Virus record (IMG/VR): IMGVR_UViG_3300021378_000115
Location: 1-28,766 of that record
Origin: a virus
DNA length: 28,766 nucleotides
Reading direction: 5' to 3' (one strand)
Both the position numbers and the translations under genes were made by a program. Positions 1,803-23,207 of this stretch are shown piece by piece. Numbering within the stretch: position 1 is the first letter of the stretch; every line of letters begins with the position of its first letter. Below the pieces are notes generated by a model. That model made no database searches, was not told where the DNA came from, and saw nothing but the letters and a program-made list of their open reading frames with translations.

Positions 1803-2165
1803 ATGGGCATCCTTAGTCAGATATTGGGAAGTGGAGACGTAGTTAGCAAAGGGCTTGACCTTATTGATAGCTTTCACACGTCCGAGACTGAAGCGATTGA
1901 AGCAAAGACTAAGGCAAAGACAGACCTCCTTACCAGCTACGCCCCATTTAAAGTAGCGCAGAGATACTTAGCTCTTATATTTGGATTCACTTTTGTAGCG
2001 TCATACCTAATGATTTTGGTGTTGTTTTTTTTGGACAAAGATGTAACCGCAGTTCAAGAAATAATTTCAGCATTTAAGATTGACTGGATCATGTTAACGA
2101 TTGTGGGTTTCTATTTTGGTGGTGGCGCCTTTGAAGGTGTCATGAACAAGAAGGATAAAAAGTAA
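1803..2165 (+). CDS. Holin-like protein of the GTA 3-TM type
   Basis: A 120-residue protein whose N-terminal MGILSQILGSGDVVSKGLDLID, charged helix (ETEAIEAKTKAK) and C-terminal membrane part match the layout of the 'holin of 3TMs' family known from gene-transfer agents and related phages. Hydrophobic segments lie at about residues 57-78 and 93-113, and the C-terminus is lysine-rich. It would act in the inner membrane, forming the lesion that releases the endolysin at the end of infection. No endolysin gene is seen in the window. It starts two bases after the preceding gene without a good Shine-Dalgarno, so translation is probably coupled, and its stop overlaps the next start (TAATG). Confidence 0.65.
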   Translation: MGILSQILGSGDVVSKGLDLIDSFHTSETEAIEAKTKAKTDLLTSYAPFKVAQRYLALIFGFTFVASYLMILVLFFLDKDVTAVQEIISAFKIDWIMLTIVGFYFGGGAFEGVMNKKDKK

Positions 2166-3805
2166 TGGCAGGTTTTAAGCTGCAAACATTTAGCGGACAG
2201 GCACCTAAGGTGTATGCTCGCTTACTGCCGGATGATATGGCACAGATTGCTACTAACTGCCGACTTGATTCTGGTAGGTTAGAGCCTTGGAAAACCAATG
2301 CATCGGCTTCCATTTCTGTTGTCGGGTCATACACAATATCTTCTCAAACAAAAACCTTGTTTAGATATAGCAGCTCGATATGGATGGGCAGCAACTATGA
2401 TATAAACATCGTAAGGTCTCCTGTTGCAGAAGACCCGCACGAAAGAATTTATATTAGCGGTTTTACTTATCCTCAAATGACCACCGCTTCTATAGTGGGA
2501 GCCAGTCAGTACTATCGCTTAGGCATCCCAAAGCCAGCAGACCTGACGTCCGTAACACTGTCCCCAACAACATCAAACAACGTTGATACAGAAGTTCCGC
2601 AGTCAAGATCGTACATTTTTACGTACGTTTCTGCGTACGGTGAGGAAGGTGTCAATTGTGATGCGGAAGCTGCTCAAGTAGTGGATGTTCACACAGACCA
2701 AACTGTCACCTTAGATTTCCCACCCAACCCTTCTGGTAATTACAACCTGACTCTTAAGCGGGTTTACAGAACGGACGCAGGGGGAACGTATAGGTTTGTT
2801 CAGGACGTTCCTATAGCGACAGATACATTCGCTGATACTGTGACTGAGGTGAATTTGGGTGAAGAGATTCCGACCTCGACGTTTGATGCTCCACCAGATG
2901 ATGACGCGGCAGATCATAAAGATGGTCCCTTGCTTGGTCTAGTGTCTATGCCTAACGGAATCCTTGCAGGTTTCTCTGGTCAAACAGTTTCATTTAGTGA
3001 GGCGTTTCAGCCTCATGCTTTTCCTGATGAGTACAAGCTAACAGTTAAGTCTGACATCGTTGCACTAGCGCCCCTTAATACAGGCTTGTTGGTTCTTACA
3101 AAAGAAAAGCCAGCAATCATTCAGGGTCTAGACCCCTCTTCCATGAGCATGATGGAGGTAGACAGTTCTTTGTCATGTGTCGCTAAAAGATCTGTTGTCG
3201 ATATGGGTGAGTTTGTTATGTACGCATCTCCTGACGGTATTGTTATGGCTAACGATAACGGACTAAGCCTTATTACAGAGCAGTCGCTAACTAGAGATCA
3301 GTGGCAGGAATACACGCCCAGTTCAATTGTAGCGTTTCAGTGGGAGGGTCATTACATCGCCTTCTACACTAACAGCTCAGAAAGCAAAGGATTTATATTC
3401 GACCCAAGGGGAGGAAAGAATTCTTTTGTAAAACTAGACTTCCATGCAACGGCTGGATTTAACGATTTAGAGAATGATCAGCTTTATTTAGTGGTTGGGG
3501 GTAGCGTTGTAAAGTTTGCTGAAGGAAGTGCAGACTCAAATTTTGTTTGGCGGGGAAAGAAATTTTACACCCCCAGACCAATCAACCCAGCAGTAGCTAA
3601 AGTACAGTGTGATAGCTACAGCCCTAATCCTACTATGAAGCTATATGCAGACGGTGTTCTCAAACATACCCAAAGTGTTACAAATAGTAACACCTTTAGA
3701 TTGCCATCAGGTTACAAAGCTAACGAGTTCGAAATAGAACTAGCAGGCTCAGTACCTATTAATGAAGTATGTGTATATGAGAGTCCGGAGGAAATAGGTG
3801 GCTAG
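2165..3805 (+). CDS. Virion structural protein (546 aa), probably tail or neck component
   Basis: A 546-residue soluble, beta-rich protein with no enzyme motif visible. The N-terminal motif pattern AP-V-AR-LP-D-AQIATNC-LDSGRLEPW is characteristic of large structural proteins of marine short-tailed phages, from memory. The middle part (about residues 140-200) looks like an Ig or FnIII-type beta-sandwich (YIFTYVSAYGEEG, then VTLDFPP and LTLKRVYRTD). Later repeated strands such as MVSMPNGILAG-like and FVMYASPDGIVMAN segments suggest a propeller-like fold. It is flanked by a holin gene and the long fibre gene, and overlaps the fibre start by eight bases. I cannot assign an exact location in the particle. 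Confidence 0.6.
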   Translation: MAGFKLQTFSGQAPKVYARLLPDDMAQIATNCRLDSGRLEPWKTNASASISVVGSYTISSQTKTLFRYSSSIWMGSNYDINIVRSPVAEDPHERIYISGFTYPQMTTASIVGASQYYRLGIPKPADLTSVTLSPTTSNNVDTEVPQSRSYIFTYVSAYGEEGVNCDAEAAQVVDVHTDQTVTLDFPPNPSGNYNLTLKRVYRTDAGGTYRFVQDVPIATDTFADTVTEVNLGEEIPTSTFDAPPDDDAADHKDGPLLGLVSMPNGILAGFSGQTVSFSEAFQPHAFPDEYKLTVKSDIVALAPLNTGLLVLTKEKPAIIQGLDPSSMSMMEVDSSLSCVAKRSVVDMGEFVMYASPDGIVMANDNGLSLITEQSLTRDQWQEYTPSSIVAFQWEGHYIAFYTNSSESKGFIFDPRGGKNSFVKLDFHATAGFNDLENDQLYLVVGGSVVKFAEGSADSNFVWRGKKFYTPRPINPAVAKVQCDSYSPNPTMKLYADGVLKHTQSVTNSNTFRLPSGYKANEFEIELAGSVPINEVCVYESPEEIGG

Positions 3806-6800
3806 AAAAGGCAATATGCCAGTACCGCCAAAATGGGCTGGGCAAGATAAAAGATTTGGCGAAACTATCAAGAACAATCTTGATGTGTTGTGCGGCTATA
3901 CAGGTGACCCTCTAGATAGGGCTTTGACTGCTAGAGACCTTCTTGATAGTGGTATTGTAAAGTTAGCGGCAGGGTCGAGTACGTTCTCTGGTGGGTCGTC
4001 AGGCTTAGCGCCAACAACAACCGCAACGACTTACGCGACTCCTCCAGCTCCTACGTCCCTGTCTGCAAGTGGTGCCTTTCAAAACATATTGCTTACGTGG
4101 AATCTCGAGATTTACACGGGGCATGCGTACACTGAGGTGTTTCGGTATACCTCAGACTCTGTTGCTGACGCGACTCTTGCGGGTCAGGTATCAGGATTCA
4201 ACGGCATATTTTCAGATGCTGTTGGCGGAGGAAAGACTTATTTCTATTGGGTAAGAGCTGTAAACCAGAACGGTGTTGCGGGACCATTTAACTCATCTAC
4301 TGGAACGCAGGGTCAAACACAGACAGATGTCGCAGTCTTGCTGGACATCCTTACGGATCAGATAACAAGCTCAGAGCTAGCTTCTAGCCTATCCACACCA
4401 ATTGCTACCATACCAACACTTGACGGCAGGATAGATGGGTTAGATGCTTATACTGGGTATACCACTACATATAGTGGCGCTAATCTTTTAACCCGCGTTG
4501 GTAATACTGAGGCTACAGCAAACACTGCTGCTTCTGCCGCCACGGCAGCCTCGTCCGCCGCAGCAACAGCTCAAGCGTCCGCTAACTCGGCAGCAGCTTC
4601 TGCATCATCATTAAGCAGTACCGTGTCAACGCTGCAAAGTTCTGTTAGCTCAAGAAATACTTCTGTTGATAGCAGCCTGTCATCTTTAAATACATCTGTA
4701 AGCAATCTTCAGTCATCTGTGTCAGATTTAACGTCTGGCACTAGCTCGGTTTACGTTCAGACTTCAGCACCAACCGGCACGATTGCGACAAACTCTAGAT
4801 GGTATGACTCTGATGACAATATGGCGCCTTATTATTATGACGGCTCTAGCTGGGTAAGTATTGCTGATCCAAGAATTGCATCTAACCAAGCATCAATTAC
4901 TTCTCTAAACTCTCAAGTATTTAATGGCGACGGGTCGTCTCGTTTAGCCACATCTTCAGCGTTAACCGCCCTTGATACCACCGTTGTAAATCTCAACGGA
5001 ACGGTAACCTCTATAGCTGCGGACGTGACAAGTTTGGAGGGGGAAGTATTTAACTCCAACGGTTCCGCTAGATTAGCTACTGGAGCAGCTGTAACAAGCC
5101 TAACAAATACAGTAACCACCCAAGGAAATAACATATCTAGCGCTCAGACGGATATTACAGATCTTGAGGGTGAGGTTTTTAATTCTGATGGTTCTGCTCG
5201 CTTAGCTACTGGAACCGCGTTAACAGGTCTAACAAATACAGTTAGCACTCAAGCCGGAACAATCACCTCAATACAGACAGACGTTACAGCACTAGAAGGG
5301 CAAGTATTTAACGCAGATGGATCTGCAAAATTAGCTACAGGATCTGCACTTACCGGAGTAACTAATTCCGTAACGGCGATTTATGACGGGACCAACGCAA
5401 GCGTTGTTAAAAGCGTACAAGATGATGTCACCGCTTTAGAGGGTGAAGTATTTAATTCTGACGGTTCCGCAAGGTTAGCGACCGGAACTGCCCTGTCAGG
5501 TCTGACTAATAGCGTCACTGCCATCTACGATGGTACAAATGCTAGTGTCGTTAAAAGTGTACAAACAGACATTACCGACCTAGAAGGTGAAGTATTTAAT
5601 TCTGACGGGTCTTCTAGACTAGCCACAGGATCAGCCTTGTCGGGTCTTACTAACTCAGTTACAGCGATCTATGATGGCACTAACGCCAGTGTCGTTAAGT
5701 CCGTGCAAACCGATGTAAGTGCGCTAGAAGGCGAAGTATTTAATTCGGATGGTTCGGCTAGACTTGCCACGGGGTCGGCTTTATCTGGACTTACCAACAG
5801 CGTAACAGCTATCTACGACGGAACGAATGCTAGTGTAGTTAAGACTGTGCAGACAGATGTAACTGCTCTTGAAGGTGAAGTCTTTAATTCGGATGGCTCG
5901 GCTAGACTTGCAACGGGTTCAGCTTTAACTGGGGTAAGTAATTCGGTAACTGCAATCTATGACGGCACAAATGCCAGTGTTGTTAAGTCAGTGCAGGACG
6001 ACGTTTCAACTTTAAATGGTGCAGTTTTTAATGCTGATGGAACTGTAGCAATAGCAACATCTGCGGCGATATCTGCGCTTTCATCAGAAGTGGAAGCTAT
6101 TTACAACCCTGAAAACCCTAGTGAAGTGTCTGTTGTAAAAACAATTCAGTCTGATATTACTTCATTAGAAGGAGAAGTATTTAATTCAGATGGGTCTGCA
6201 AGATTAGCTACAGGTTCTGCTTTAAATACAGTGTCCAATAGTGTTACTGCAATCTATGATGGCGGAAATGCTAGTGTTGTTAAGTCTGTTCAGGATGACA
6301 TAACTGATTTAAATAACTCCGTTTTTGATTCTAGCGGAAATGTTTTACTTGCTACTACTTCTGCATTGTCTGGTCTTACCACATCTGTTGAGGCTATTTA
6401 TAACCCTGACGATCCAGATGCAGTATCACTTGTTAAAACAATTCAAAGCGATGTAACTGATCTTGAGTCAGCAGTTTTCGATTCTAATGGAGTTGTTCAA
6501 TTAGCAACGCAAAATTCCATTGATGGTTTAACAACTAGTATTGAGGCTATCTATAATCCAGATAACCCCAATGAAGCGTCTGCGGTTAAGTCGCTACAAG
6601 GTAGATCTACAGCATTGGAAGGTGCGGTATTTAATGGCAATCAGGTTAAGTTAGCTACAGTAGATGCGCTAGACGGGTTAACTAATAACGTAACTGCAAT
6701 ATACAACCCCAATGACCCAGACGCGGTTACTCAAATTAGCGCCATACAGGAAAAAGTAACCAGCCTAGATGCTGAGGTATTTAATGCTAACGATACCTCA

Positions 6801-13190: not shown

Positions 13191-16100
13191 ATGCCCATAT
13201 ATGCGAATCAAGACTTTAACAACGCCCGTCTAAAAACCTTCAAGGAAGAAGAGGAAACCGGAGTTCTTAACGAATTCGGTAAGGGTTTCGGCGCTGGTGT
13301 AGATCAGTTGCAGGCTCTTGCCGGTGGTGCAAAAGCGTTAGTTGGATCGGCTGTCGGTAACGATGATTGGTTCTATGACGGTATGCAGTACTTCGACGAG
13401 CAGATGGCAGAAGCCGCTGAGAATACTGCTGATGTCGGAAGGCTAGAAGACATTGATGGTGGTGGAGACTTAGCAAATTATGCTGCATTTATCGTAGGCA
13501 ACATTATACCTAGCCTCATTGGGGGCGGTGGTGTTGGTGCAGTAGGGGGTTTTGCCGCCAAGAAGCTAGCCATACATCAAGGCGCAAAAGCTCTAGTCAA
13601 AAAGAACGCTGAAGGAATGGCGAAGAGTGCAGCGTCAAGGCAGTACGCACAGTCAGCTGTAGGCAGAGAGGCTTTGGGTAAGGTTGGGCTAAAGGGTCAG
13701 GTCGCAGGCGCTGTAGGTTTTGGTACGGTGATGGGTGCGGGAGAATCCTTTACTAGAATCTTTGATGAGACTGGTGAAGAGGCTGCTGGTCTAGCACTTG
13801 TTACGGGTCTAGCATCTGGTGCGTTAGACGCAATGACTCCAATGAGAGTCTTGAAGCGTGTCTTACCACAAAACCTATACGGCAAAGCTACTCAAGAAAT
13901 AGCTGAAAACGTAAGCAAAAAACAATCAGTCATTGGTCGCGCATTTAAAGAGGCAGCCAAAGCATCCGGTACTGAAGGCGTAACGGAGATGATGCAGGAA
14001 GTTGTACAGAACTCTACCTTGGAGTTTGTACGCGGTCAGCAAGACCCTGCTATAGAGGAAGCGTTCCTTGAGCGATTGTTCGATGAAGAGAACCGATCTC
14101 AATACCTTAATGCGTTTGTAGCTGGTGCCATTGGTGGTGGAGCTATCGGCGGCGTTACTGGTGCTGTCACTAAAGATCCAGAGCTAAAGCAAAACCTAGA
14201 TGAGAATGCTTTAGACGGTAAGTCTGAAGAAAGCTCGCCGGAAGTTGTTTTAGATGAAGAGCAGGCTCAAGAACAAGAACAAGCTCCGGTTATAGATGAT
14301 CAGCCGCAACCAGAGTCAACTGACAAGGGCGGAGCAAAGGTTCAGGCTGCAAGAGAAAAAGCTCTCGATCTTCCTAAAGGCAGAGCAAGGAATGACCCGC
14401 GCACTGACCCACTAACGGTAGAACAAGCTAGAGAGCAGGCTAGGAGTAGAACCGAGACGCAAATTGATGGGCGTAGATTGCCTACTGGCAGAACGACTAT
14501 AGCTCCAAAAAGCAGAGAGGAAGTTCGTCGAGAAATTGATGACTTCCCAGATCGTCAAGATCGATCTGACCCTGAAGCAAGGCAAGAAGAAGCTAGAGCA
14601 AAAGCAAGGGCGCAAATTGAGGGGCTTCCTGCCGTTCGAGAAAAGGTCAAAAAAATCTATCAGATGGAGCTTGGTGCTCTAGGTGAGACAACAAGAATAC
14701 CTAAAGACAAAGAGCCAGAGCCTGTAGCTGAAGAGCCTCCAGTGTTTGGTGGCAACTTACCAGAGTCTATCACCCCCAGAATGGAAGAGCTTGTAGGTCA
14801 GGACGTAGACTACAACGGAAACAAAGGACCAGTACTTAAGAAAGACGACGGGTTCTACGTAGCAACTCAAGACAACGGTGACGTGCTTATTGAGAGTGGT
14901 GAGTACCAGTCTCCAGAGCAGTTAGGTGTCGTGCCTACTGGTGGCAATCTGGTATTCGAGAAAGACGTTCAGATTGATGACAACAATAAATTTGAATTGC
15001 GCGGGAAAAAATATTCTCTCACCCGAATTATAAGAGATGCAGAAGGTAATCCTTTATCTCTAGCAGTAAGGGATGAGAACGGTGCAAAGAAAACTATTAG
15101 GACTCCAGAAGTAGTAGCTAGAATCAATAACCAAAAGACTCCAGTTCCTGACTTCTCTCAAATTATAGTAGAACTAGATGACTTACCTGCAAGCATACAA
15201 AAGCAGGTAATACAGCAGTCTGACCCAGACAACATCCCAGATAGTGTTCCGGCATCTCAAGCTATAGATATCGCGCAATCAATGCCTAATGCAGAAGCTG
15301 TGGTAGAGGGCATTCAAGAGATAGCAACTCAAAGCCTCACGATCCCTCAAGGTTCTATGAGCGATATGCCTGCGGTTGCTTACACAGAGAATGTAACGCG
15401 CCCTAACATGAAGCCTTTGGCTCAGGCTATATCTGACATCAATGATTCTCAAGGCGCTAATAGATCACCTATTGATCAAGGTCGTATAGACAGTTTGTTT
15501 GCGTCTCCTGAAGTTGTGATGCAGAACGGTAATACGATTACTGTAGCCGAAGGTGTTCAGGCTGATGAGATTAAGCACGCTCTAGTTGATCTGCTAGGTG
15601 CAGGTCTTCCAAAGCGTGTGATGAATTATGTAAGCGGCTTTTATTCACATACCGATAGCCAGATGGACAGGCAGGTAGCTGGCTCATACTTAAAAGCATC
15701 TAAAGCGATAACGCTAAATAGTGCGAGAGTTAAGGAACTTATAGCCGACAAAGACAATAGCAGCGATTCTGCTATCGAACTCAGATTTAATCTTGCTCAT
15801 GAAATCGGTCATGCTTTTGATGTAGGCACTGGTCACACAACCAACTCTCCAGACTTTTCTTTAGAGGTAAACGGGATGGGCATGAACTCGGCTACTTACG
15901 AGATGGGACCAGTTATCCATGAGCTGGGTCAAAACTATTTAAGTGGCACAGAGTTAGGTCAAGAGTTAGCATACCCATTCGGACCAGCATTTGAATGGAT
16001 AGCTAATTCAGAACCTCAGAATATAGCGGGTCAAGTAGATCGCATGCAGAAAGAAGCATTCGCTCAAGCGTTTGCCATCTTTCATACAAGCCCTGAACTA

Positions 16101-19100
16101 CTTCAGGAGCAAGCACCAAAAACGTATAAGCATCTAGAGAGACTGCTTAGAACGCAACCAACGGAGACTATTCAAAATGGCGAAGCTGACATTCGGACCA
16201 ATGAAGCTAACGGGCAACCTCAAGAAGTACAGGGAGAAGTTCGGTCACCTACCCAGCGCGGAAGCACTCAAGTTCAGGAGCAAGAAGGATCTGGAGGAGA
16301 TGGCGGAAGTAGCCTTGATGCGGAACAAGCCAGTCAAGGACTGGGAGAACCGACCCAACGTGAAGCTGGGGACAGGGATGGACGAGCTGTACAGCTAGAG
16401 CAAACAGAGCCGAAGGTAAAACGAGCCGCAGATTTTGAGAACACTGGTAACTATAACGTCACCTATCCGGACGGCACTGAATACTTAATCTATCGAGACA
16501 CAATGCAGTTTGCCAATCCAATGTGGCACTTGTCTCCAGAGTACTATGACATTCTCAAGCTGGACTTCAACGCCATCGCAAGAACTGGCGGTATCGGTGA
16601 CAATCGAAAGGAAGCCTTGCAGTGGCTTAATAAAGCACACAGTGAACGACTAGAGAAAGCTGAAGCGGACGCTGTTCAGCAAGATCTTGGTGATATCGAT
16701 GACGACTATGATCCGATGGATGATCTGGCTGGCTTCGATGATGATGCCCTGTATCAGGCGGTAAGCACTAGGTTCCCTACAGCTAAAGAAAGAACTCAAG
16801 ACCCTTTAAGAGAATTATTGGTCAACGACTACGAAAGTTTTTTGAATGCTGGCAATCTGTTTAGCAAAAACATTGCTCTCATAAAGCCCTACACAAACCT
16901 TACACAGCAAGAGCAAAACGGATCGGATGAGGTTGTTGCCGAAAGATTTGTAAATCATGTGCGAGACAACCTGTTATATATATTTGATTCTGTTCCTCAA
17001 GCCACAAGAGAAGTATCGAAACAGTGGTACGAGGGCGCAAACAAAATCGTACAGCGAATGGCTGACAGGCATGGCATTTCGCTTGCTCAAGCGAGCGCTG
17101 TAACTGCTAACTTATCTCCACAGAAAGACTGGTATCAGAATGCTAGCCTAGCTGAGAGAGTTATTGATATATATCACCAGAACATGAACGACCCGTTTGA
17201 TCAGGCTATGAAAGAAAAAGCCGAGCAAATATATTTTCATAAGGGTGTAAATGCTAAGACAAAAATAGAAAACAGAGAAAAGCTGGACATCATTAAAGAA
17301 AAATCTCTGAGCGATTTAATTCGAGAGGATGCTCCAAGTAATATTTTAGGGATGTGGATACGGACCTATGATCAGACGTACAACGCTCCGAGTTATCGAA
17401 TAGTTTCTCCTGACGGGAAATTATTAGATTATGCGCTAAACGCAAACGGGAAAACTCGGTCAAAGGTTGCTTGGGGTTCGCTCTCTGAAATAGGGAAGGC
17501 TGTCACAGCGCTGATTAATAGCGATATGGATACACTTTCCTTGTCTCTCGGCGATAAGAACAAGGTCAGAAACTTTTACAACAATATTTTTGATCCTGCA
17601 TCTGATTTAGGTTTTGTGACGATAGACACCCATGCTGTCGCCGCTGGCTTAATCAGACCTTTAGGAGGGAACTCTCCAGAGGTAGCGGCAAACTTTGGCT
17701 CGGGCGCCTCAAACTCTACAGTTACGGGTCACAGAGGAACGTATTCACTTTATGAGGAAGCATATCGAAGAGCCGCCAAAGATAGAAACGTGTTGCCTAG
17801 AGAGATGCAGTCAATTACTTGGGAGGCAGTAAGGGGTTTATTTACTGCCGGTTATAAGTCAAATAAACAAAACGGCGTATTTGTACAAGGCGTATGGAGT
17901 CAATATAATAACGGTAAATTAAGCCTCGATGAGGCAAGGGTAAAAATCAATGAGCATTCCGGAGGAATACAAAGACCTGATTGGGAGCGATCCGATTCTT
18001 CAGTACCTGACGAAGTATCAGAAACCAGTTACGAGAGAATCCTATCTGATAGAGGCGTACCCAGACAGGACTCTGGACCCCAAGAAGCCACTGGAAGCGG
18101 AGCTAGAATCGATGCTGCCGGAGTTTCTACAGATCAGCTAGACTCACCCCCACAAAGACCTTCAGAGAAGGACTTCGTAACTGCCCCCACAAGTACAGCC
18201 GCAGAGATCATGTCGGATGAAGACTTGGTTGCATCTGTTCGCGCTGGATCAGACGGCAGTCAAGTAATCGACGCAGTCAAAGATAAAGATGTTAAGGCAG
18301 CAGCAGGGTTTGCAGCTTCAGGTTTTAAGAAGTGGTTCCAGAAGAACTTCTACTCCAGAGGTCTATTGCCTGAGACAGCGTTTGATTCAAAGATCGAGCG
18401 TGATGGTGAGTTCGGTGCTGTGGAGATGGACATCCGCCAGATGGTTGGATTGTTTGATGAAGCGGTTCAGAACAACTTCGGCGAGATAGACGCATCACAG
18501 GCTGCTGTGTTGGACAAAGCAATGCAAGTACCAGCGGCAGAAGTTATGGCTTCTAAGCTACCTAATGATATTAAGGAAGCTCTGGTAGCAATGCGTAACT
18601 ACATCGACAAGATGTCAGCTGACTATGCTGAGATACTTAACTCAGATATAGAAAAGCTGAAGTCTGAGGGTAACGATGAAGCGCTAGCCAAGAGTGAGTT
18701 GTTAAGCATTGTTGTCAACAATATGGGTAAGTATGCAAACAGAAGCCACAGGGCTTTTGACGATAAGAACTGGAACAAAGAAGTCCCCAAAGAAATCATT
18801 TTGGCAGCTAGAAACTTCCTTGTAGAGCAGGGTACTACTAACCCAGATCAGGTAATCAATACCATACTCAAAGAAGGTACTGCCTTTGATGATATGTCAT
18901 CGTTTATTGCCGAGTCTAAGTTAGGGGCAAAAGACCTATCCATCCTGAAGAAACAAAAGGATATAGCCCCAGAGATACGGGCACTTCTAGGTGAGTATAA
19001 GGATGCGCGAATCAACTTCGCTAAGTCAGCCACCAAGATGTCTCGCCTTATCTACAACGACAGGTTCCTTAACCAAGTTCTTAAAGACGGTAAGGGTGTA

Positions 19101-20879
19101 TTCCTGTTTGATCAGGCAGATGCTCCGGTAGGCGCAACGAAAAAAATTGCGGAAGTCGGGTCAAAAACCATGTCCCCCCTCAACGGCTTATATACATTCC
19201 CTGAGATAGAGCAAGCATTCAGAGACGCCCTAGATAAGGAGCAGCTAGGAGGCTTGTATAAGACGGTTATCCAGATCAACGGTATGGTCAAGTACGGTAA
19301 GACTGTAATCGCACCTACCACTATGGCTCGTAACTGGATGTCTGCATCTCTGTTTACTGTGGCAAATGGGCACTTTAACTGGTCTAAAATAGGCAAGTCG
19401 ATTGATGTGACCAGTAGCTACAGAACAGGTCAAGGTGACGGCGTTGAGTACTTAAAGCGCCTGAAAAAGCTAGGTGTAGTACACGACAACCCATACGCTG
19501 GCGAGATGGTAGATCTGTTGAAGGACACTAACGCAGAGCAGTGGGTATCAGGCACAGGAATGATGAAGTCATTCTTTGATAACGCTACACGGTTCTATCA
19601 GTATGGTGATGACTTCTGGAAGATCGTTGGCTTCGAGAATGAAATCATCAACTTCATGGAGAACAAGGGCATGTCACGCGAAGAAGCTGAGATCAAATCA
19701 GCTAAGCGTATTCGTGACACCTACCCAACTTACTCTCTGATTGGTGATCTGCCTCAGAAGTTAAGACGTTTTCCTCTTGCTGGCACGTTTGTTTCTTTCC
19801 CCGCAGAAATTGTTAGGACGCAAGCGAACATGATCAAGTACTTGCGTGAAGACTTGGCAGATCCAGACATGAGACCTGCTGCTCTTAAGCGTATTGCAGG
19901 TATAGGTATGGTTAGTGCGGGTGTGTATGCAGCTCAAGCAATGGCTATGTCAGCGTTTGGTGTTTCGGAAGAAGAGGAAGAGGCTATCAAGTTGATGGCA
20001 GCTCCTTGGGCTAAGAACTCAAACATACTGGTAACAGGTAGAGATGATCAAGGTCGCTTAGAGTACTTAGATCTTACTCATCTTGACCCATACGCACTAA
20101 TGAAGCGTCCATTAAATGCGTTACTGAGAGATCAGCCGCTAGATGATGCTGTAGTAGATGCTGGGGTTGAAATACTTAAGCCGTTCTTAGGCTGGGATAT
20201 ATCCACCAATACTATCTTAGAGTTTATCTCAAACGAGAAGACGTCAGGCGGTGAGGTCTATAACGAGGCTGACACGCTAGCCAATAAAGCTGTAGATACC
20301 TACATGCACTTTGAGAGAGGTATGGGACCAAGCGTTATACAGAACGGTCGCCGTATGGAGAAAGCTCTTTCAGGAGAAATATCTAGAGGCGGTAAGGCTT
20401 ACGATGTTGGTGATGAAATGGCGGCATTTATAGGCTTCCGTAAGACTACATTTGATCCTAAGACTGCACTGCACTTTAAGGCGTATGAGTTCTCAGAAGG
20501 TAAGCGCCAGTCAACTAGACTGCTTACCTCCGTGTTTAGAGACCCTAACGATGTATCGGATAGCGATATACGAGAAGCTTTTGGCAGAGCTTCTACAGCT
20601 AGGCGCGAGACCTTTGAAGATATGGCAGCTCTGGTAAGTGCAGCTATGAGTTCCGGCTTAAACGCTACACAAACAATGACAATATTGCGCTCTAACGGCG
20701 TGACCAAGAAGGATGCTAGGGCTTTGATTCAGGGTGGGGCATCAGCTTGGACTATGTCAGACAGCACTTTAAAGAACTCAATATCTAAGTCAGACGTTTT
20801 GTTTGGTAAGCAGAAGAGTAAAGAGTTTGTTGATAGATGGACATTAATTCAACAGCTATTAAATGAAGAGTTAAATTAA
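13191..20879 (+). CDS. Giant polyvalent virion/ejection protein (2562 aa) with zinc-protease and glycosylase-like domains
   Basis: The single open frame encodes, in order: a Gly/Ala-rich membrane-active N-terminal region (hydrophobic runs near residues 98-125 and 305-326); a charged Arg/Glu/Gln linker (about 330-520); small beta-rich modules (about 527-655); a zincin-like domain with HEIGH at residues 870-874 and a likely third ligand Glu955 in KEAFAQAF; a low-complexity linker (about 996-1069); a domain of about 1200-1597 resembling DUF7178-type proteins and HhH-GPD DNA glycosylases (NLSPQKDW near 1308, VTIDTHAV with Asp1479); a second linker (about 1587-1650); and a helical C-terminal part of about 900 residues with a segment near 2043-2063 like the LPD38 domain of polyvalent phage proteins. 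It would be packaged and injected with the DNA. Two overprinted small genes lie in the linkers. Confidence 0.75.
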   Translation: MPIYANQDFNNARLKTFKEEEETGVLNEFGKGFGAGVDQLQALAGGAKALVGSAVGNDDWFYDGMQYFDEQMAEAAENTADVGRLEDIDGGGDLANYAAFIVGNIIPSLIGGGGVGAVGGFAAKKLAIHQGAKALVKKNAEGMAKSAASRQYAQSAVGREALGKVGLKGQVAGAVGFGTVMGAGESFTRIFDETGEEAAGLALVTGLASGALDAMTPMRVLKRVLPQNLYGKATQEIAENVSKKQSVIGRAFKEAAKASGTEGVTEMMQEVVQNSTLEFVRGQQDPAIEEAFLERLFDEENRSQYLNAFVAGAIGGGAIGGVTGAVTKDPELKQNLDENALDGKSEESSPEVVLDEEQAQEQEQAPVIDDQPQPESTDKGGAKVQAAREKALDLPKGRARNDPRTDPLTVEQAREQARSRTETQIDGRRLPTGRTTIAPKSREEVRREIDDFPDRQDRSDPEARQEEARAKARAQIEGLPAVREKVKKIYQMELGALGETTRIPKDKEPEPVAEEPPVFGGNLPESITPRMEELVGQDVDYNGNKGPVLKKDDGFYVATQDNGDVLIESGEYQSPEQLGVVPTGGNLVFEKDVQIDDNNKFELRGKKYSLTRIIRDAEGNPLSLAVRDENGAKKTIRTPEVVARINNQKTPVPDFSQIIVELDDLPASIQKQVIQQSDPDNIPDSVPASQAIDIAQSMPNAEAVVEGIQEIATQSLTIPQGSMSDMPAVAYTENVTRPNMKPLAQAISDINDSQGANRSPIDQGRIDSLFASPEVVMQNGNTITVAEGVQADEIKHALVDLLGAGLPKRVMNYVSGFYSHTDSQMDRQVAGSYLKASKAITLNSARVKELIADKDNSSDSAIELRFNLAHEIGHAFDVGTGHTTNSPDFSLEVNGMGMNSATYEMGPVIHELGQNYLSGTELGQELAYPFGPAFEWIANSEPQNIAGQVDRMQKEAFAQAFAIFHTSPELLQEQAPKTYKHLERLLRTQPTETIQNGEADIRTNEANGQPQEVQGEVRSPTQRGSTQVQEQEGSGGDGGSSLDAEQASQGLGEPTQREAGDRDGRAVQLEQTEPKVKRAADFENTGNYNVTYPDGTEYLIYRDTMQFANPMWHLSPEYYDILKLDFNAIARTGGIGDNRKEALQWLNKAHSERLEKAEADAVQQDLGDIDDDYDPMDDLAGFDDDALYQAVSTRFPTAKERTQDPLRELLVNDYESFLNAGNLFSKNIALIKPYTNLTQQEQNGSDEVVAERFVNHVRDNLLYIFDSVPQATREVSKQWYEGANKIVQRMADRHGISLAQASAVTANLSPQKDWYQNASLAERVIDIYHQNMNDPFDQAMKEKAEQIYFHKGVNAKTKIENREKLDIIKEKSLSDLIREDAPSNILGMWIRTYDQTYNAPSYRIVSPDGKLLDYALNANGKTRSKVAWGSLSEIGKAVTALINSDMDTLSLSLGDKNKVRNFYNNIFDPASDLGFVTIDTHAVAAGLIRPLGGNSPEVAANFGSGASNSTVTGHRGTYSLYEEAYRRAAKDRNVLPREMQSITWEAVRGLFTAGYKSNKQNGVFVQGVWSQYNNGKLSLDEARVKINEHSGGIQRPDWERSDSSVPDEVSETSYERILSDRGVPRQDSGPQEATGSGARIDAAGVSTDQLDSPPQRPSEKDFVTAPTSTAAEIMSDEDLVASVRAGSDGSQVIDAVKDKDVKAAAGFAASGFKKWFQKNFYSRGLLPETAFDSKIERDGEFGAVEMDIRQMVGLFDEAVQNNFGEIDASQAAVLDKAMQVPAAEVMASKLPNDIKEALVAMRNYIDKMSADYAEILNSDIEKLKSEGNDEALAKSELLSIVVNNMGKYANRSHRAFDDKNWNKEVPKEIILAARNFLVEQGTTNPDQVINTILKEGTAFDDMSSFIAESKLGAKDLSILKKQKDIAPEIRALLGEYKDARINFAKSATKMSRLIYNDRFLNQVLKDGKGVFLFDQADAPVGATKKIAEVGSKTMSPLNGLYTFPEIEQAFRDALDKEQLGGLYKTVIQINGMVKYGKTVIAPTTMARNWMSASLFTVANGHFNWSKIGKSIDVTSSYRTGQGDGVEYLKRLKKLGVVHDNPYAGEMVDLLKDTNAEQWVSGTGMMKSFFDNATRFYQYGDDFWKIVGFENEIINFMENKGMSREEAEIKSAKRIRDTYPTYSLIGDLPQKLRRFPLAGTFVSFPAEIVRTQANMIKYLREDLADPDMRPAALKRIAGIGMVSAGVYAAQAMAMSAFGVSEEEEEAIKLMAAPWAKNSNILVTGRDDQGRLEYLDLTHLDPYALMKRPLNALLRDQPLDDAVVDAGVEILKPFLGWDISTNTILEFISNEKTSGGEVYNEADTLANKAVDTYMHFERGMGPSVIQNGRRMEKALSGEISRGGKAYDVGDEMAAFIGFRKTTFDPKTALHFKAYEFSEGKRQSTRLLTSVFRDPNDVSDSDIREAFGRASTARRETFEDMAALVSAAMSSGLNATQTMTILRSNGVTKKDARALIQGGASAWTMSDSTLKNSISKSDVLFGKQKSKEFVDRWTLIQQLLNEELN
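16177..16398 (+). CDS. Nested small gene 1 (73 aa) in the +1 frame of the giant gene
   Basis: ATG at 16177 preceded by GGAG at 16163-16166 (spacing 10). It encodes a 73-residue basic protein with a balanced, ordinary composition: a start MAKLTFGPMKLTGNLKKY, a helix with HLPSAEALKFRSKKDLEEMA, then WENRPNVKLGT and a final MDELYS. The ending motif pattern (WENRP, GT, LY) reminds me of a small protein family in phage structural clusters, not verified. In the giant frame the same bases give Gly/Gln/Glu/Ser-rich low-complexity sequence, which is what AAG, GAG and GGA codons yield when read one base off. That argues the +1 frame is the older, selected one. No function is known. Confidence 0.55.
   Translation: MAKLTFGPMKLTGNLKKYREKFGHLPSAEALKFRSKKDLEEMAEVALMRNKPVKDWENRPNVKLGTGMDELYS
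17950..18141 (+). CDS. Nested small gene 2 (63 aa) in the +1 frame of the giant gene
   Basis: ATG at 17950 preceded by AAGGG at 17936-17940 (spacing 9). The 63-residue product is acidic and helical: MSIPEEYKDL, then LTKYQKPVTRESYLIEAYPD, then a PLEAELESMLPEFLQ ending. The combination 'P-x-TRE-x-YL-x-x-AY ... EAELE-x-x-LP-x-x-x-Q' is the signature of a widespread family of 50-70-aa phage proteins of unknown function (recognised from memory, often TRENYLxLAY). Here that family member sits wholly within a larger gene, offset by one base in the same +1 frame as nested gene 1. The giant frame over it is Ser/Asp/Gly/Pro-rich linker. Of the two nested genes this is the better supported. Confidence 0.65.
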   Translation: MSIPEEYKDLIGSDPILQYLTKYQKPVTRESYLIEAYPDRTLDPKKPLEAELESMLPEFLQIS

Positions 20880-22289: not shown

Positions 22290-23207
22290 TTATAGCATTC
22301 CTTCAATGTTAGACGATGCAATCTTTCTTTGAGCTTGGTTTAGATGAGCATATCGTTGCAATGAAGTACGATCTTTCCATCCTCCTAACTCCATAAGCAC
22401 CATCTCACTCGTTCCGTTTTCAATGTGCCAGCTAGCAAATGTGTGACGCATGGTGTGAAAGGTGGTTCCTTCTGGCAAGCCAGCTTTTCTGCAAGCATTC
22501 TTGTAGGTGCTGTTTGTAATTTCACTTAAAACATTACCTACCTTTGTTCTGCCTCCAGACTGCTGAACAAAGACATAGTCTATCTTGTTGCGAAGATACC
22601 TATGCTTCTTTACTAGAGCATCGTTTAAATCCTTTCGTCGCAGCAAGACTGCTCGAGCATCTGCGTTTAACGGGATGAGGATATCCTCGCCCATCTTGGC
22701 ATCTTTTCCATCGACAAGAAGTGACGACAAGTCTTCTGATATTTGCCCCCACTTCAAAAGTCTGATGTTTGTCTTTCGCAACCCTGTCGCTACTGCAAAT
22801 CTAACTTGATCTGCTCTCAAGTCATCCAAAGTTCCAATAAGGTCGAGAACCTGTTGAGGCTTAAGAAAGATCTTGCTCTTAGTCTCTGGCAACACGGACA
22901 ACTTAGGCACTCTATTTATATGCTCTTTACTGTAAGCGTAGTTAAGAATAGCTCGCATAATAATAGTGTGCTTGTTAACCCAGCTATTGCTGACCCTTTG
23001 ACCAATTTTCCTTTTGGATGGTTGTACCCGCAGATCCTCAATAAAATTATCGAAAAGAGCGATCTTTTCAAATGCTTTAATCGGCTTGTTACCAAACACC
23101 TTAATAAGGTTATTAGCGACAACTACCGTGGTTCTCTGCTTCTCATCGTTATGTGCGCTTGGCTGTGCCAAATAACGATCAGCTATTTCTTTAAATGTTA
23201 ACTTCAT
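22290..23207 (-). CDS. int: Tyrosine-recombinase integrase (305 aa)
   Basis: ATG at 23207 on the minus strand with GGAG seven bases upstream. The N-terminal part (about residues 1-110) is the helical core-binding domain (WVNKHTIIMRAILNYAYS). The catalytic domain shows Arg144 in ATGLRKTNIRLLKW, a beta-hairpin Lys in DGKDAKMGEDI (168 or 171), His251-x-x-Arg254 in HTMRHTFASW, Trp277 in the second histidine position (LGGWKD), and the nucleophile Tyr286 in RYAHL. All key residues are present, so the enzyme should be active. It inserts phage DNA into the host chromosome at attB. The first domain is short, without an obvious arm-type binding domain. No excisionase was recognised in the window. Confidence 0.93.
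   Translation of the reverse strand: MKLTFKEIADRYLAQPSAHNDEKQRTTVVVANNLIKVFGNKPIKAFEKIALFDNFIEDLRVQPSKRKIGQRVSNSWVNKHTIIMRAILNYAYSKEHINRVPKLSVLPETKSKIFLKPQQVLDLIGTLDDLRADQVRFAVATGLRKTNIRLLKWGQISEDLSSLLVDGKDAKMGEDILIPLNADARAVLLRRKDLNDALVKKHRYLRNKIDYVFVQQSGGRTKVGNVLSEITNSTYKNACRKAGLPEGTTFHTMRHTFASWHIENGTSEMVLMELGGWKDRTSLQRYAHLNQAQRKIASSNIEGML

What the first reader, a model, noticed from the sequence alone, without database searches (positions are those of the whole stretch)
16150..18215. Gene-fusion-by-overprinting model: small genes became interdomain linkers
Both nested genes are in the same +1 frame and each falls exactly between two folded parts of the giant protein (zincin | small gene 1 | glycosylase-like domain | small gene 2 | helical LPD part). 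The likely history is three large genes separated by two small ones, joined when the large genes lost their stops and read through the small genes in a different frame. The linkers of the giant protein would then be by-products of other genes. An in-frame ATG at 18210, just after small gene 2, may be the relic start of the third ancestral gene.
Basis: inference. Interest (0 to 1): 0.85.

Follow-up and report, generated by a model that had tools for sequence, protein, structure and literature searches.

The report
Swappable enzyme cassettes with nested genes
In a family of giant phage proteins, enzyme-like parts are followed by their own tiny genes hidden in another reading frame of the giant gene, and part and tiny gene are gained, lost and swapped together, which suggests that the tiny protein is the partner of the part before it.

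Summary
Both nested +1-frame genes are real. Their length alone is not above chance, but both belong to conserved families, each tied to one domain. Small1 follows the zincin domain in 43 of 44 unique cases. Small2 follows the DNA-glycosylase-like DUF7178 domain ("B") in 92 of 102. Most members have a start with a ribosome-binding site, and the small frame, more than the giant's linker, is conserved.

The read-through idea holds for B/small2: in 30 unique loci B stops about where small2 starts, in 28 it reads just through, in 34 it reads on. One read-through group sits among tandem lineages. Small1 was never seen outside a giant.

The main correction: [B+small2] is an exchangeable cassette, not one of three fused ancestral genes. 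Closely related giants carry [B+small2] or [another domain + another nested gene] in one slot; it is empty in L021 and L022. Further nested families pair with further domains.

Best reading: polymorphic-toxin-like enzyme-plus-partner cassettes inside a virion polyprotein. That the small proteins restrain their enzymes is inferred, not shown.

The parts
13191..20879 (+). giant gene, 2562 aa, polyvalent-type virion protein
   Evidence: ORF; residues 1836-2538 match phrog_22602 virion structural protein E 2e-64
13269..14162 (+). N domain (N-terminal part shared by many giants)
   Evidence: profile hit
14730..15458 (+). MID domain
   Evidence: profile hit shared by a subset of giants
15579..16142 (+). 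zincin metallopeptidase domain (ZN), HExxH
   Evidence: H-E-x-x-H invariant in the 10 rows of A4; weak Pfam PF07737 E 1.7e-4, below cut-off; profile hits lethal-factor chains in PDB E 3e-5
16163..16166 (+). Shine-Dalgarno-like GGAG, 10 nt before small1 start
16177..16398 (+). small gene 1 (s1), 73 aa, +1 frame inside the giant
   Evidence: s1 family 3' of ZN in 43 of 44 unique loci, +1 in 43 of 43
16748..18170 (+). exchangeable cassette [B + small gene 2]
   Evidence: blastn against L004 colinear up to 16747 and from 18171; against L003 up to 16754 and from 18132
16761..17939 (+). B domain (DUF7178, PF23802), DNA-glycosylase-like fold
   Evidence: Pfam E 8.7e-27; AF2 pLDDT 96; VIA-align AGOG Z 8.5, OGG1 Z 7.1; Foldseek best E only 0.26
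17936..17939 (+). weak Shine-Dalgarno-like AAGG, 10 nt before small2 start
17950..18141 (+). small gene 2 (s2), 63 aa, +1 frame inside the giant
   Evidence: s2 family 3' of B in 92 of 102 unique loci; B 5' of s2 in 71 of 73 s2-retrieved loci, the other 2 at contig ends
18324..20870 (+). C part (C1 18324-18704, C2 18711-20870), virion structural
   Evidence: stand-alone gene in Pseudoalteromonas phage Y3

Best explanation
The giant gene encodes a polyvalent-type internal virion protein. Its interior holds a cassette slot. The unit that moves is an enzyme-like domain in the giant's frame plus a small gene directly 3' of it in the +1 frame, with its own start, over which the giant reads as a disordered-looking linker. 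In the window the fixed pair is zincin+small1 and the slotted cassette is DNA-glycosylase-like B+small2. Shown by comparison: the pairing, the separate starts, selection on the small frame, exchange of domain and small gene together, and that B and small2 also exist as ordinary adjacent genes from which, in one clade, read-through forms most simply arose. Inferred: the small protein is the partner of the domain before it, most likely a binder that restrains the enzyme (or helps it fold) in the cell that makes the virions, while the giant is packaged and ejected. Nesting in another frame lets a partner gene travel inside a polyprotein without ending it.
For: One-to-one pairing, unique domains with partner: W-s5 6 of 6, X-s3b 9 of 10, Y-s3a 8 of 14, all +1; ZN-s1 43 of 44; B-s2 92 of 102 (one of the 10 without, L055, has only 66 bases after B). 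No domain type had another's partner within 300 nt, except X in one phage (2 overlapping loci), which has s3a after s3b. s2 retrieved on its own: 71 of 73 loci have B directly 5', the other 2 begin 43 and 77 bases before s2. Exchange: L009 and L120 are 97.9% identical up to the slot and 90.6% after it but carry [B+s2] and [W+s5]; window against L004 ([X+s3b]) and L003 ([W+s5]) likewise; segment lengths keep the frame in the two pairs checked. Slot empty in L021 and L022. Starts with SD: 37 of 42 and 81 of 88 against 7% and 12% control. Small frames are the best conserved frames. Tandem and nested states of one gene pair, a nested group inside tandem lineages. Opposite median charge of domain and partner in 4 of 5 pairs.
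Against: No binding, inhibition, expression or packaging is shown. B keeps the proposed catalytic residues in all 10 rows without s2, so s2 is not always needed. Y lacks s3a in 6 of 14 and X lacks s3b in 1 of 10; Y and s3a are both acidic, and X/s3b charges are small (+2, -1). s1 is more conserved than its zincin (0.75 against 0.69), unlike many fast-evolving immunity proteins (general knowledge). Charge co-variation is weak after tree correction (ZN-s1 contrasts r -0.31, p 0.04, 25 opposite and 12 same of 42) and unclear for B-s2 (p 0.08, uncorrected). The swapped segments of L009, L120 and L004 hold more than domain and small gene. The window's clade is nested throughout, so its own polarity is unresolved. 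The B fold match is middling for a helical protein (Foldseek E 0.26; Z 8.5).
Confidence: 0.6

Rival explanations
1. One reading: three large genes separated by two small ones lost their stops and fused, leaving the small genes as linkers.
For: B and s2 occur as separate neighbours (30 of 102 unique) and in short read-throughs (28); a separate internal virion protein gene follows s2 in L079; C is a stand-alone gene in L017.
Against: s1 never occurs outside a giant (0 of 43); giants N-ZN-s1-C without B exist; B and s2 are swapped together in otherwise alike giants; homology of the separate downstream gene to the window's C is unproven (hhalign 85.7%, but 12.8%, with HMM scores like shuffled controls).
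Confidence: 0.15
2. De novo overprinting: the small genes arose as new +1-frame ORFs inside pre-existing tolerant linkers.
For: The overlapped giant segments are disordered-like, ORFs of this length appear by chance, and phase-1 overlaps are favoured by composition (PMC2542354, abstract seen). It cannot be excluded for s1, which is only known nested.
Against: s2 is a stand-alone gene in tandem loci whose B frame is closed by stops, and the giant frame over s1 and s2 shows little constraint of its own.
Confidence: 0.12
3. The small genes are independent phage genes that hitchhike next to these domains and have no functional link to them.
For: No interaction evidence exists; linkage alone would keep pairs together over short times.
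Against: Five domain types are followed by five different small families, also after exchange between backgrounds (W-s5 in L003 and in L120), and s2 has no orphan copies in 71 testable loci.
Confidence: 0.2
4. The +1 ORFs are C-terminal tails reached by programmed +1 frameshifting, giving B-s2 and zincin-s1 fusion forms.
For: Nearly all are in the +1 frame and begin right after the domain.
Against: Start codons with SD sites well above control, and stand-alone copies in other frames relative to B (L052, L183: +2; L176: 0).
Confidence: 0.05

Closest known systems
Two-component spanin genes (lambda Rz/Rz1; embedded, overlapped, separated)
   Same: Partner genes of one complex, the small one fully inside the larger, usually in the +1 frame; three architectures exist (PMC6139136, passages seen).
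   Different: That survey reports no family with embedded together with overlapped or separated members, and only envisions stop loss as one route; here one gene pair shows all states. Here the host is a polyprotein with several nested genes that move as cassettes, and nothing points to lysis.
Polymorphic toxin / immunity cassettes, including phage MuF toxins
   Same: Enzyme-like domain plus small downstream gene exchanged together on a constant backbone (PMC3482391 and PMC5576092, passages seen).
   Different: There the toxin is the C-terminal end and the immunity gene follows its stop; here the domain is internal and the small gene is overprinted so that the protein continues. Toxicity and immunity are untested here.
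Polyvalent proteins of phages and conjugative elements
   Same: Giant multidomain phage proteins with zincin domains; LPD38 and ART-PolyVal domains in relatives (PMC5512222, passages seen).
   Different: The word 'overlapping' has no occurrence in that paper's main text as held and its two 'nested' hits are a hairpin structure; I saw no mention of nested partner genes in the passages shown.
Small phage inhibitors of DNA glycosylases (Ugi, p56; recalled, no call)
   Same: Small acidic proteins; s2 median pI 4.3 next to a glycosylase-like domain of median pI 8.3.
   Different: Ugi and p56 act on uracil-DNA glycosylase (recalled); s2 is not known to inhibit anything and homology to them was not tested.

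Membership tests
Polyvalent proteins (LPD-type giants) | very large multidomain phage protein with several unrelated domains | tested here: met
   zincin, DUF7178 and virion structural part in one ORF
Polyvalent proteins (LPD-type giants) | zincin-like metallopeptidase domain | tested here: met
   HExxH invariant in 10 aligned rows; lethal-factor-like profile hits
Polyvalent proteins (LPD-type giants) | a named LPD domain | tested here: inconclusive
   none in the window's giant by Pfam; LPD38 in relatives L028 and L158
HhH-GPD / AGOG-type DNA glycosylases (for B) | fold | tested here: inconclusive
   the 14 rows of Z 4.4 or more are DNA-glycosylase or DUF2419 entries and one hypothetical archaeal protein; best Z 8.5, rmsd 4.7, 203 aligned; Foldseek E 0.26; no PDB sequence match
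HhH-GPD / AGOG-type DNA glycosylases (for B) | catalytic Lys and Asp | tested here: inconclusive
   K268 and D289 kept in 101 of 102 rows, the other being a gap; equivalence to OGG1 K249/D268 is recalled, not aligned by a tool
HhH-GPD / AGOG-type DNA glycosylases (for B) | glycosylase activity | not testable with these tools
   needs an enzyme assay
Polymorphic toxin-immunity systems | domain plus small partner gene exchanged together on a constant backbone | tested here: met
   L009/L120, window/L004, window/L003
Polymorphic toxin-immunity systems | variable toxin domain at the C-terminus, immunity gene after the stop | tested here: not met
   cassette is internal and small gene nested
Polymorphic toxin-immunity systems | toxicity of the domain and neutralisation by the small protein | not testable with these tools
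   needs bench work
Embedded two-component genes of the Rz/Rz1 type | small gene wholly inside the larger in the +1 frame with its own start | tested here: met
Embedded two-component genes of the Rz/Rz1 type | inner-membrane protein and outer-membrane lipoprotein (spanins) | not tested
   no signal-peptide prediction run; no such claim is made

The most novel reading that the evidence does not exclude
These phages carry a virion polyprotein built from interchangeable effector cassettes in which each effector domain brings its own antidote gene, written in the +1 frame of the linker behind it. The overprint is what allows antidote-bearing cassettes to be exchanged in the middle of a polyprotein. 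It would be an internal, frame-stacked toxin-antidote system, with the glycosylase-like B restrained by acidic small2 and the zincin by basic small1 until ejection.
Probability: 0.35. Interest if true: 0.92.

Novelty: new variant of a known kind. Interest (0 to 1): 0.8.

Why it matters
The spanin survey PMC6139136 names stop loss as one conceivable route to embedded genes but reports no family with embedded together with overlapped or separated members (passages). Here one gene pair shows separate, overlapping, read-through and fully embedded states on one tree, so the route can be tested. The cassettes also suggest where to look for partner genes of uncharacterised domains in giant phage proteins: in the +1 frame behind each domain. 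The two window small genes had no Pfam, PHROG, NCBIfam or PADLOC match at E 0.01; scans of family members gave only single weak hits (Pfam 1 of 42 s2 at 0.006, PHROGs 0 of 42 s2 and 1 of 26 s1 at 0.008). tblastn found neither in 50,697 phage records, though a profile finds s2 in one of them, Rhodobacteraceae phage LS06-2018-MD07 (L020, E 2e-9). Such genes would be missed by ordinary annotation.

Tried and rejected
Homology of domains X, W and B: they share motif-like strings by eye (WY, SP...N, Q..xW), but hhalign gave 0.2% (B-X), 0.8% (B-W) and 4.2% (X-W), so I do not claim it.

Homology of the gene after s2 in tandem phages to the window's C part: phmmer 9e-6 for one pair and hhalign 85.7%, but with a different, closer set hhalign gave 12.8% and the HMM scores (best 5.1 bits) were no better than shuffled controls (best 6.5 bits, 450 sequences); two earlier HMM and phmmer checks also gave nothing convincing. 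Left open.

A recurrent D-x-L-x-S/A-P-P string at cassette edges (possible processing site): seen at the right edges in the window, L003, L009 and L120, a looser form in L004, and not in all giants by pattern. Left as a lead.

All-against-all search for conserved nested ORFs: the largest cluster (423 ORFs) mixed s2 with high-GC low-complexity frames, and most two-member clusters looked spurious; only s1, s2, s3a, s3b and s4 were kept. s5 was found by reading the swapped segment.

Search for s1 in 289 genomes of the class of G001: no match, which shows little. No paper in the library holds the word DUF7178. Searches whose listings showed me no report of nested partner genes in polyvalent phage proteins. 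Of papers I saw passages of PMC5512222, PMC5576092, PMC6139136, PMC3482391, PMC10386132 and PMC8227390 and the abstract of PMC2542354, none whole; the library lacks most subscription papers.

Rows dropped: B hits lacking the C-terminal part of the profile; rows with identical B, ZN, X, Y or W translations; L180, L181 and L184 left out of the first tree; these plus L171, L173, L178, L179, L182, L019, L020, L055 and rows 90% or more alike left out of the second. L181 and L184 have B in broken pieces; L184's piece is counted as tandem.

Full report
What is there. The window is a 28,766-base virus record. The giant ORF 13191-20879 holds two +1-frame ORFs at 16177-16398 (s1) and 17950-18141 (s2). 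Profiles place N, MID, zincin (ZN), s1, B (DUF7178), s2, C1 and C2 in that order. The C part matches a virion structural family.

Chance. ORF length proves nothing: synonymous shuffles give a +1 ATG ORF of at least 73 aa in 408 of 1000 and two of at least 63 aa in 237 of 1000. The +1 frame is also not telling by itself: among nested stop-to-stop ORFs of 38 aa or more in 365 large ORFs, 2710 are +1 and 1558 +2, and a compositional explanation of such a bias is in print (PMC2542354, abstract).

The small genes are real. s1 and s2 have homologues in other contigs, the distant ones 37-59% identical, in the same relation to their domain. An in-frame ATG/GTG with a ribosome-binding site of 4 or more bases is present for 37 of 42 unique s1 and 81 of 88 unique s2; the same rule at 4000 random +1 positions gives 7% and 12%. 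Substitutions follow the small frame: in 84 nested-short pairs s2 identity is 0.77, the B frame over it 0.67, the unused frame 0.61; in 36 tandem pairs 0.77, 0.56 and 0.55; for window-L008 0.81, 0.70 and 0.62. For s1 in 154 pairs of middling distance: s1 0.754, zincin 0.685, giant frame over s1 0.621, unused frame 0.602; the farther (364) and nearer (10) pairs agree in direction, with the giant frame no higher than the unused one. So the giant's linker there is largely a by-product, with weak constraint at most over s2.

Each small family belongs to one domain. s1 follows ZN in 43 of 44 unique ZN; the exception ends 3 bases after ZN. s2 follows B in 92 of 102 unique B C-termini: 30 tandem, 28 nested-short, 27 nested-long, 7 nested and running off the contig; one of the 10 without s2 ends 66 bases after B. 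The frame is +1 in all 62 nested and in 27 of 30 tandem cases. Retrieved by s2 alone, 71 of 73 loci have B directly 5', and the other two start 43 and 77 bases before s2 (many of these contigs were already in the B set). Other nested +1 families were found: s3b after X (9 of 10 unique), s3a after Y (8 of 14), s5 after W (6 of 6), and s4 in 4 loci. Apart from one phage with X-s3b-s3a, no domain was followed by another's partner.

From neighbours to nested. In tandem loci B typically ends ...GGI..P.W.. and a stop, and s2 starts with a ribosome-binding site at the same place; in nested loci B reads on. In 27 of 28 nested-short loci the extended B stops on or beside the start codon of the next gene. 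On the B tree, tandem against nested needs 5 changes (99 rows) or 6 (65 rows). In the second tree a clade of 27 rows (99/96) holds 3 tandem rows (100/99) beside 24 (100/99) that split into 5 tandem (100/95) and 19 nested (93/57), so tandem to nested is the shorter reading there; two nested-long rows sit inside the nested-short ones. The tree is unrooted, the nested group itself is weakly supported, and the window's clade is nested throughout. Twenty-four of 27 tandem +1 loci have three or more stops in the B frame up to the end of s2, counting B's own, so several changes, or lineages with few stops such as L075 and L085, are needed.

A cassette, not only a fusion. Window and L004 align at about 80% up to 16747 and 92% from 18171; between them the window has [B+s2] and L004 [X+s3b and more]. 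Window and L003 break at 16754 and resume at 18132, with [W+s5] in L003. L009 and L120 are 97.9% identical up to L009:3831 and 90.6% from 5776, with [B+s2 and about 500 further bases] against [W+s5 and more]. Length differences are multiples of three in the two pairs checked (window/L004, L009/L120). In L021 and L022 only 56 and 75 residues separate s1 from C1. The left edge lies at a shared FDDD-type string in the two pairs printed.

What the domains may do. B folds confidently (pLDDT 96). Its best PDB neighbours by VIA-align are AGOG, DUF2419 (queuosine salvage), OGG1 and MUTYH (Z 8.5 to 5.8), with mostly unrelated helical proteins from Z 4.0 down, but Foldseek's best E is only 0.26 and such Z values are common for helical models. 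K268 and D289 are kept in 101 of 102 rows (one gap), with or without s2; likeness to OGG1 K249/D268 is recalled. In L079 the B gene lies after an internal virion protein gene (phrog_418) and a 592-aa gene without a match, and before s2 and another internal virion protein gene (phrog_6651), followed by a tail protein gene, so B is probably part of the ejected protein set (inference). s2 is predicted as four short helices (pLDDT 87.6).

Function of the small proteins (inferred). Near-obligate pairing, joint exchange, separate translation and mostly opposite charges fit a partner that binds the preceding domain. Median pI: B 8.3 and s2 4.3; ZN 4.4 and s1 9.4; W 4.7 and s5 10.1; X 8.4 and s3b 5.6; against this Y 5.4 and s3a 4.3. 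I favour restraint of the enzyme in the producing cell over a chaperone role, with roughly 0.35 for the antidote reading. B without s2 keeps its conserved residues (10 of 10), which counts against an absolute need.

Against known systems. Polymorphic toxin cassettes exchange domain and immunity gene together, as passages of PMC3482391 and PMC5576092 indicate, but at the 3' end of the gene. Spanin genes show embedded, overlapped and separated forms, and PMC6139136 envisions stop loss as one route while reporting no family mixing embedded with other forms. Polyvalent proteins (PMC5512222) are the class of the host protein. The combination seen here, internal cassettes with overprinted partner genes, I did not see in the listings and passages named under Tried and rejected.

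Noticed in passing
L028 12032-12310; L004 4389-4601; L024 2836-3141; L158 4877-5122: Further nested +1 gene families (s3a, s3b, s4) behind other domains of related giants; in L028 s3b and s3a lie in one nested ORF.
   Followed up: partly
L120 4587-7391: The [W+s5] segment also carries a Pfam ART-PolyVal ADP-ribosyltransferase match after s5.
   Followed up: no
L004 about 4900-5190: A weak Phage_L5_gp82 match (below cut-off) lies between s3b and C1.
   Followed up: no
L017 8977-9336 and 9977-10336: In Pseudoalteromonas phage Y3 the C1 domain occurs twice: at the end of a large ORF and near the start of the separate C gene.
   Followed up: no
L174, L175, L177: Bradyrhizobium genome contigs carry B with nested s2, so the pair also sits in cultured genera, probably in prophages.
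   Followed up: no
window 18132-18170, L009 and L120 right edges: Right edges of cassettes share a D-x-L-x-S/A-P-P string, possibly a processing or recombination site.
   Followed up: partly
window 16375-16398: small1 ends in GMDELYS, like the tail of GFP (recalled); relatives vary there, so I take it as chance.
   Followed up: yes
window 22290-23207 and 2165-3805: Phage integrase gene and a strong phrog_511 internal virion protein match: probably a temperate tailed phage.
   Followed up: no
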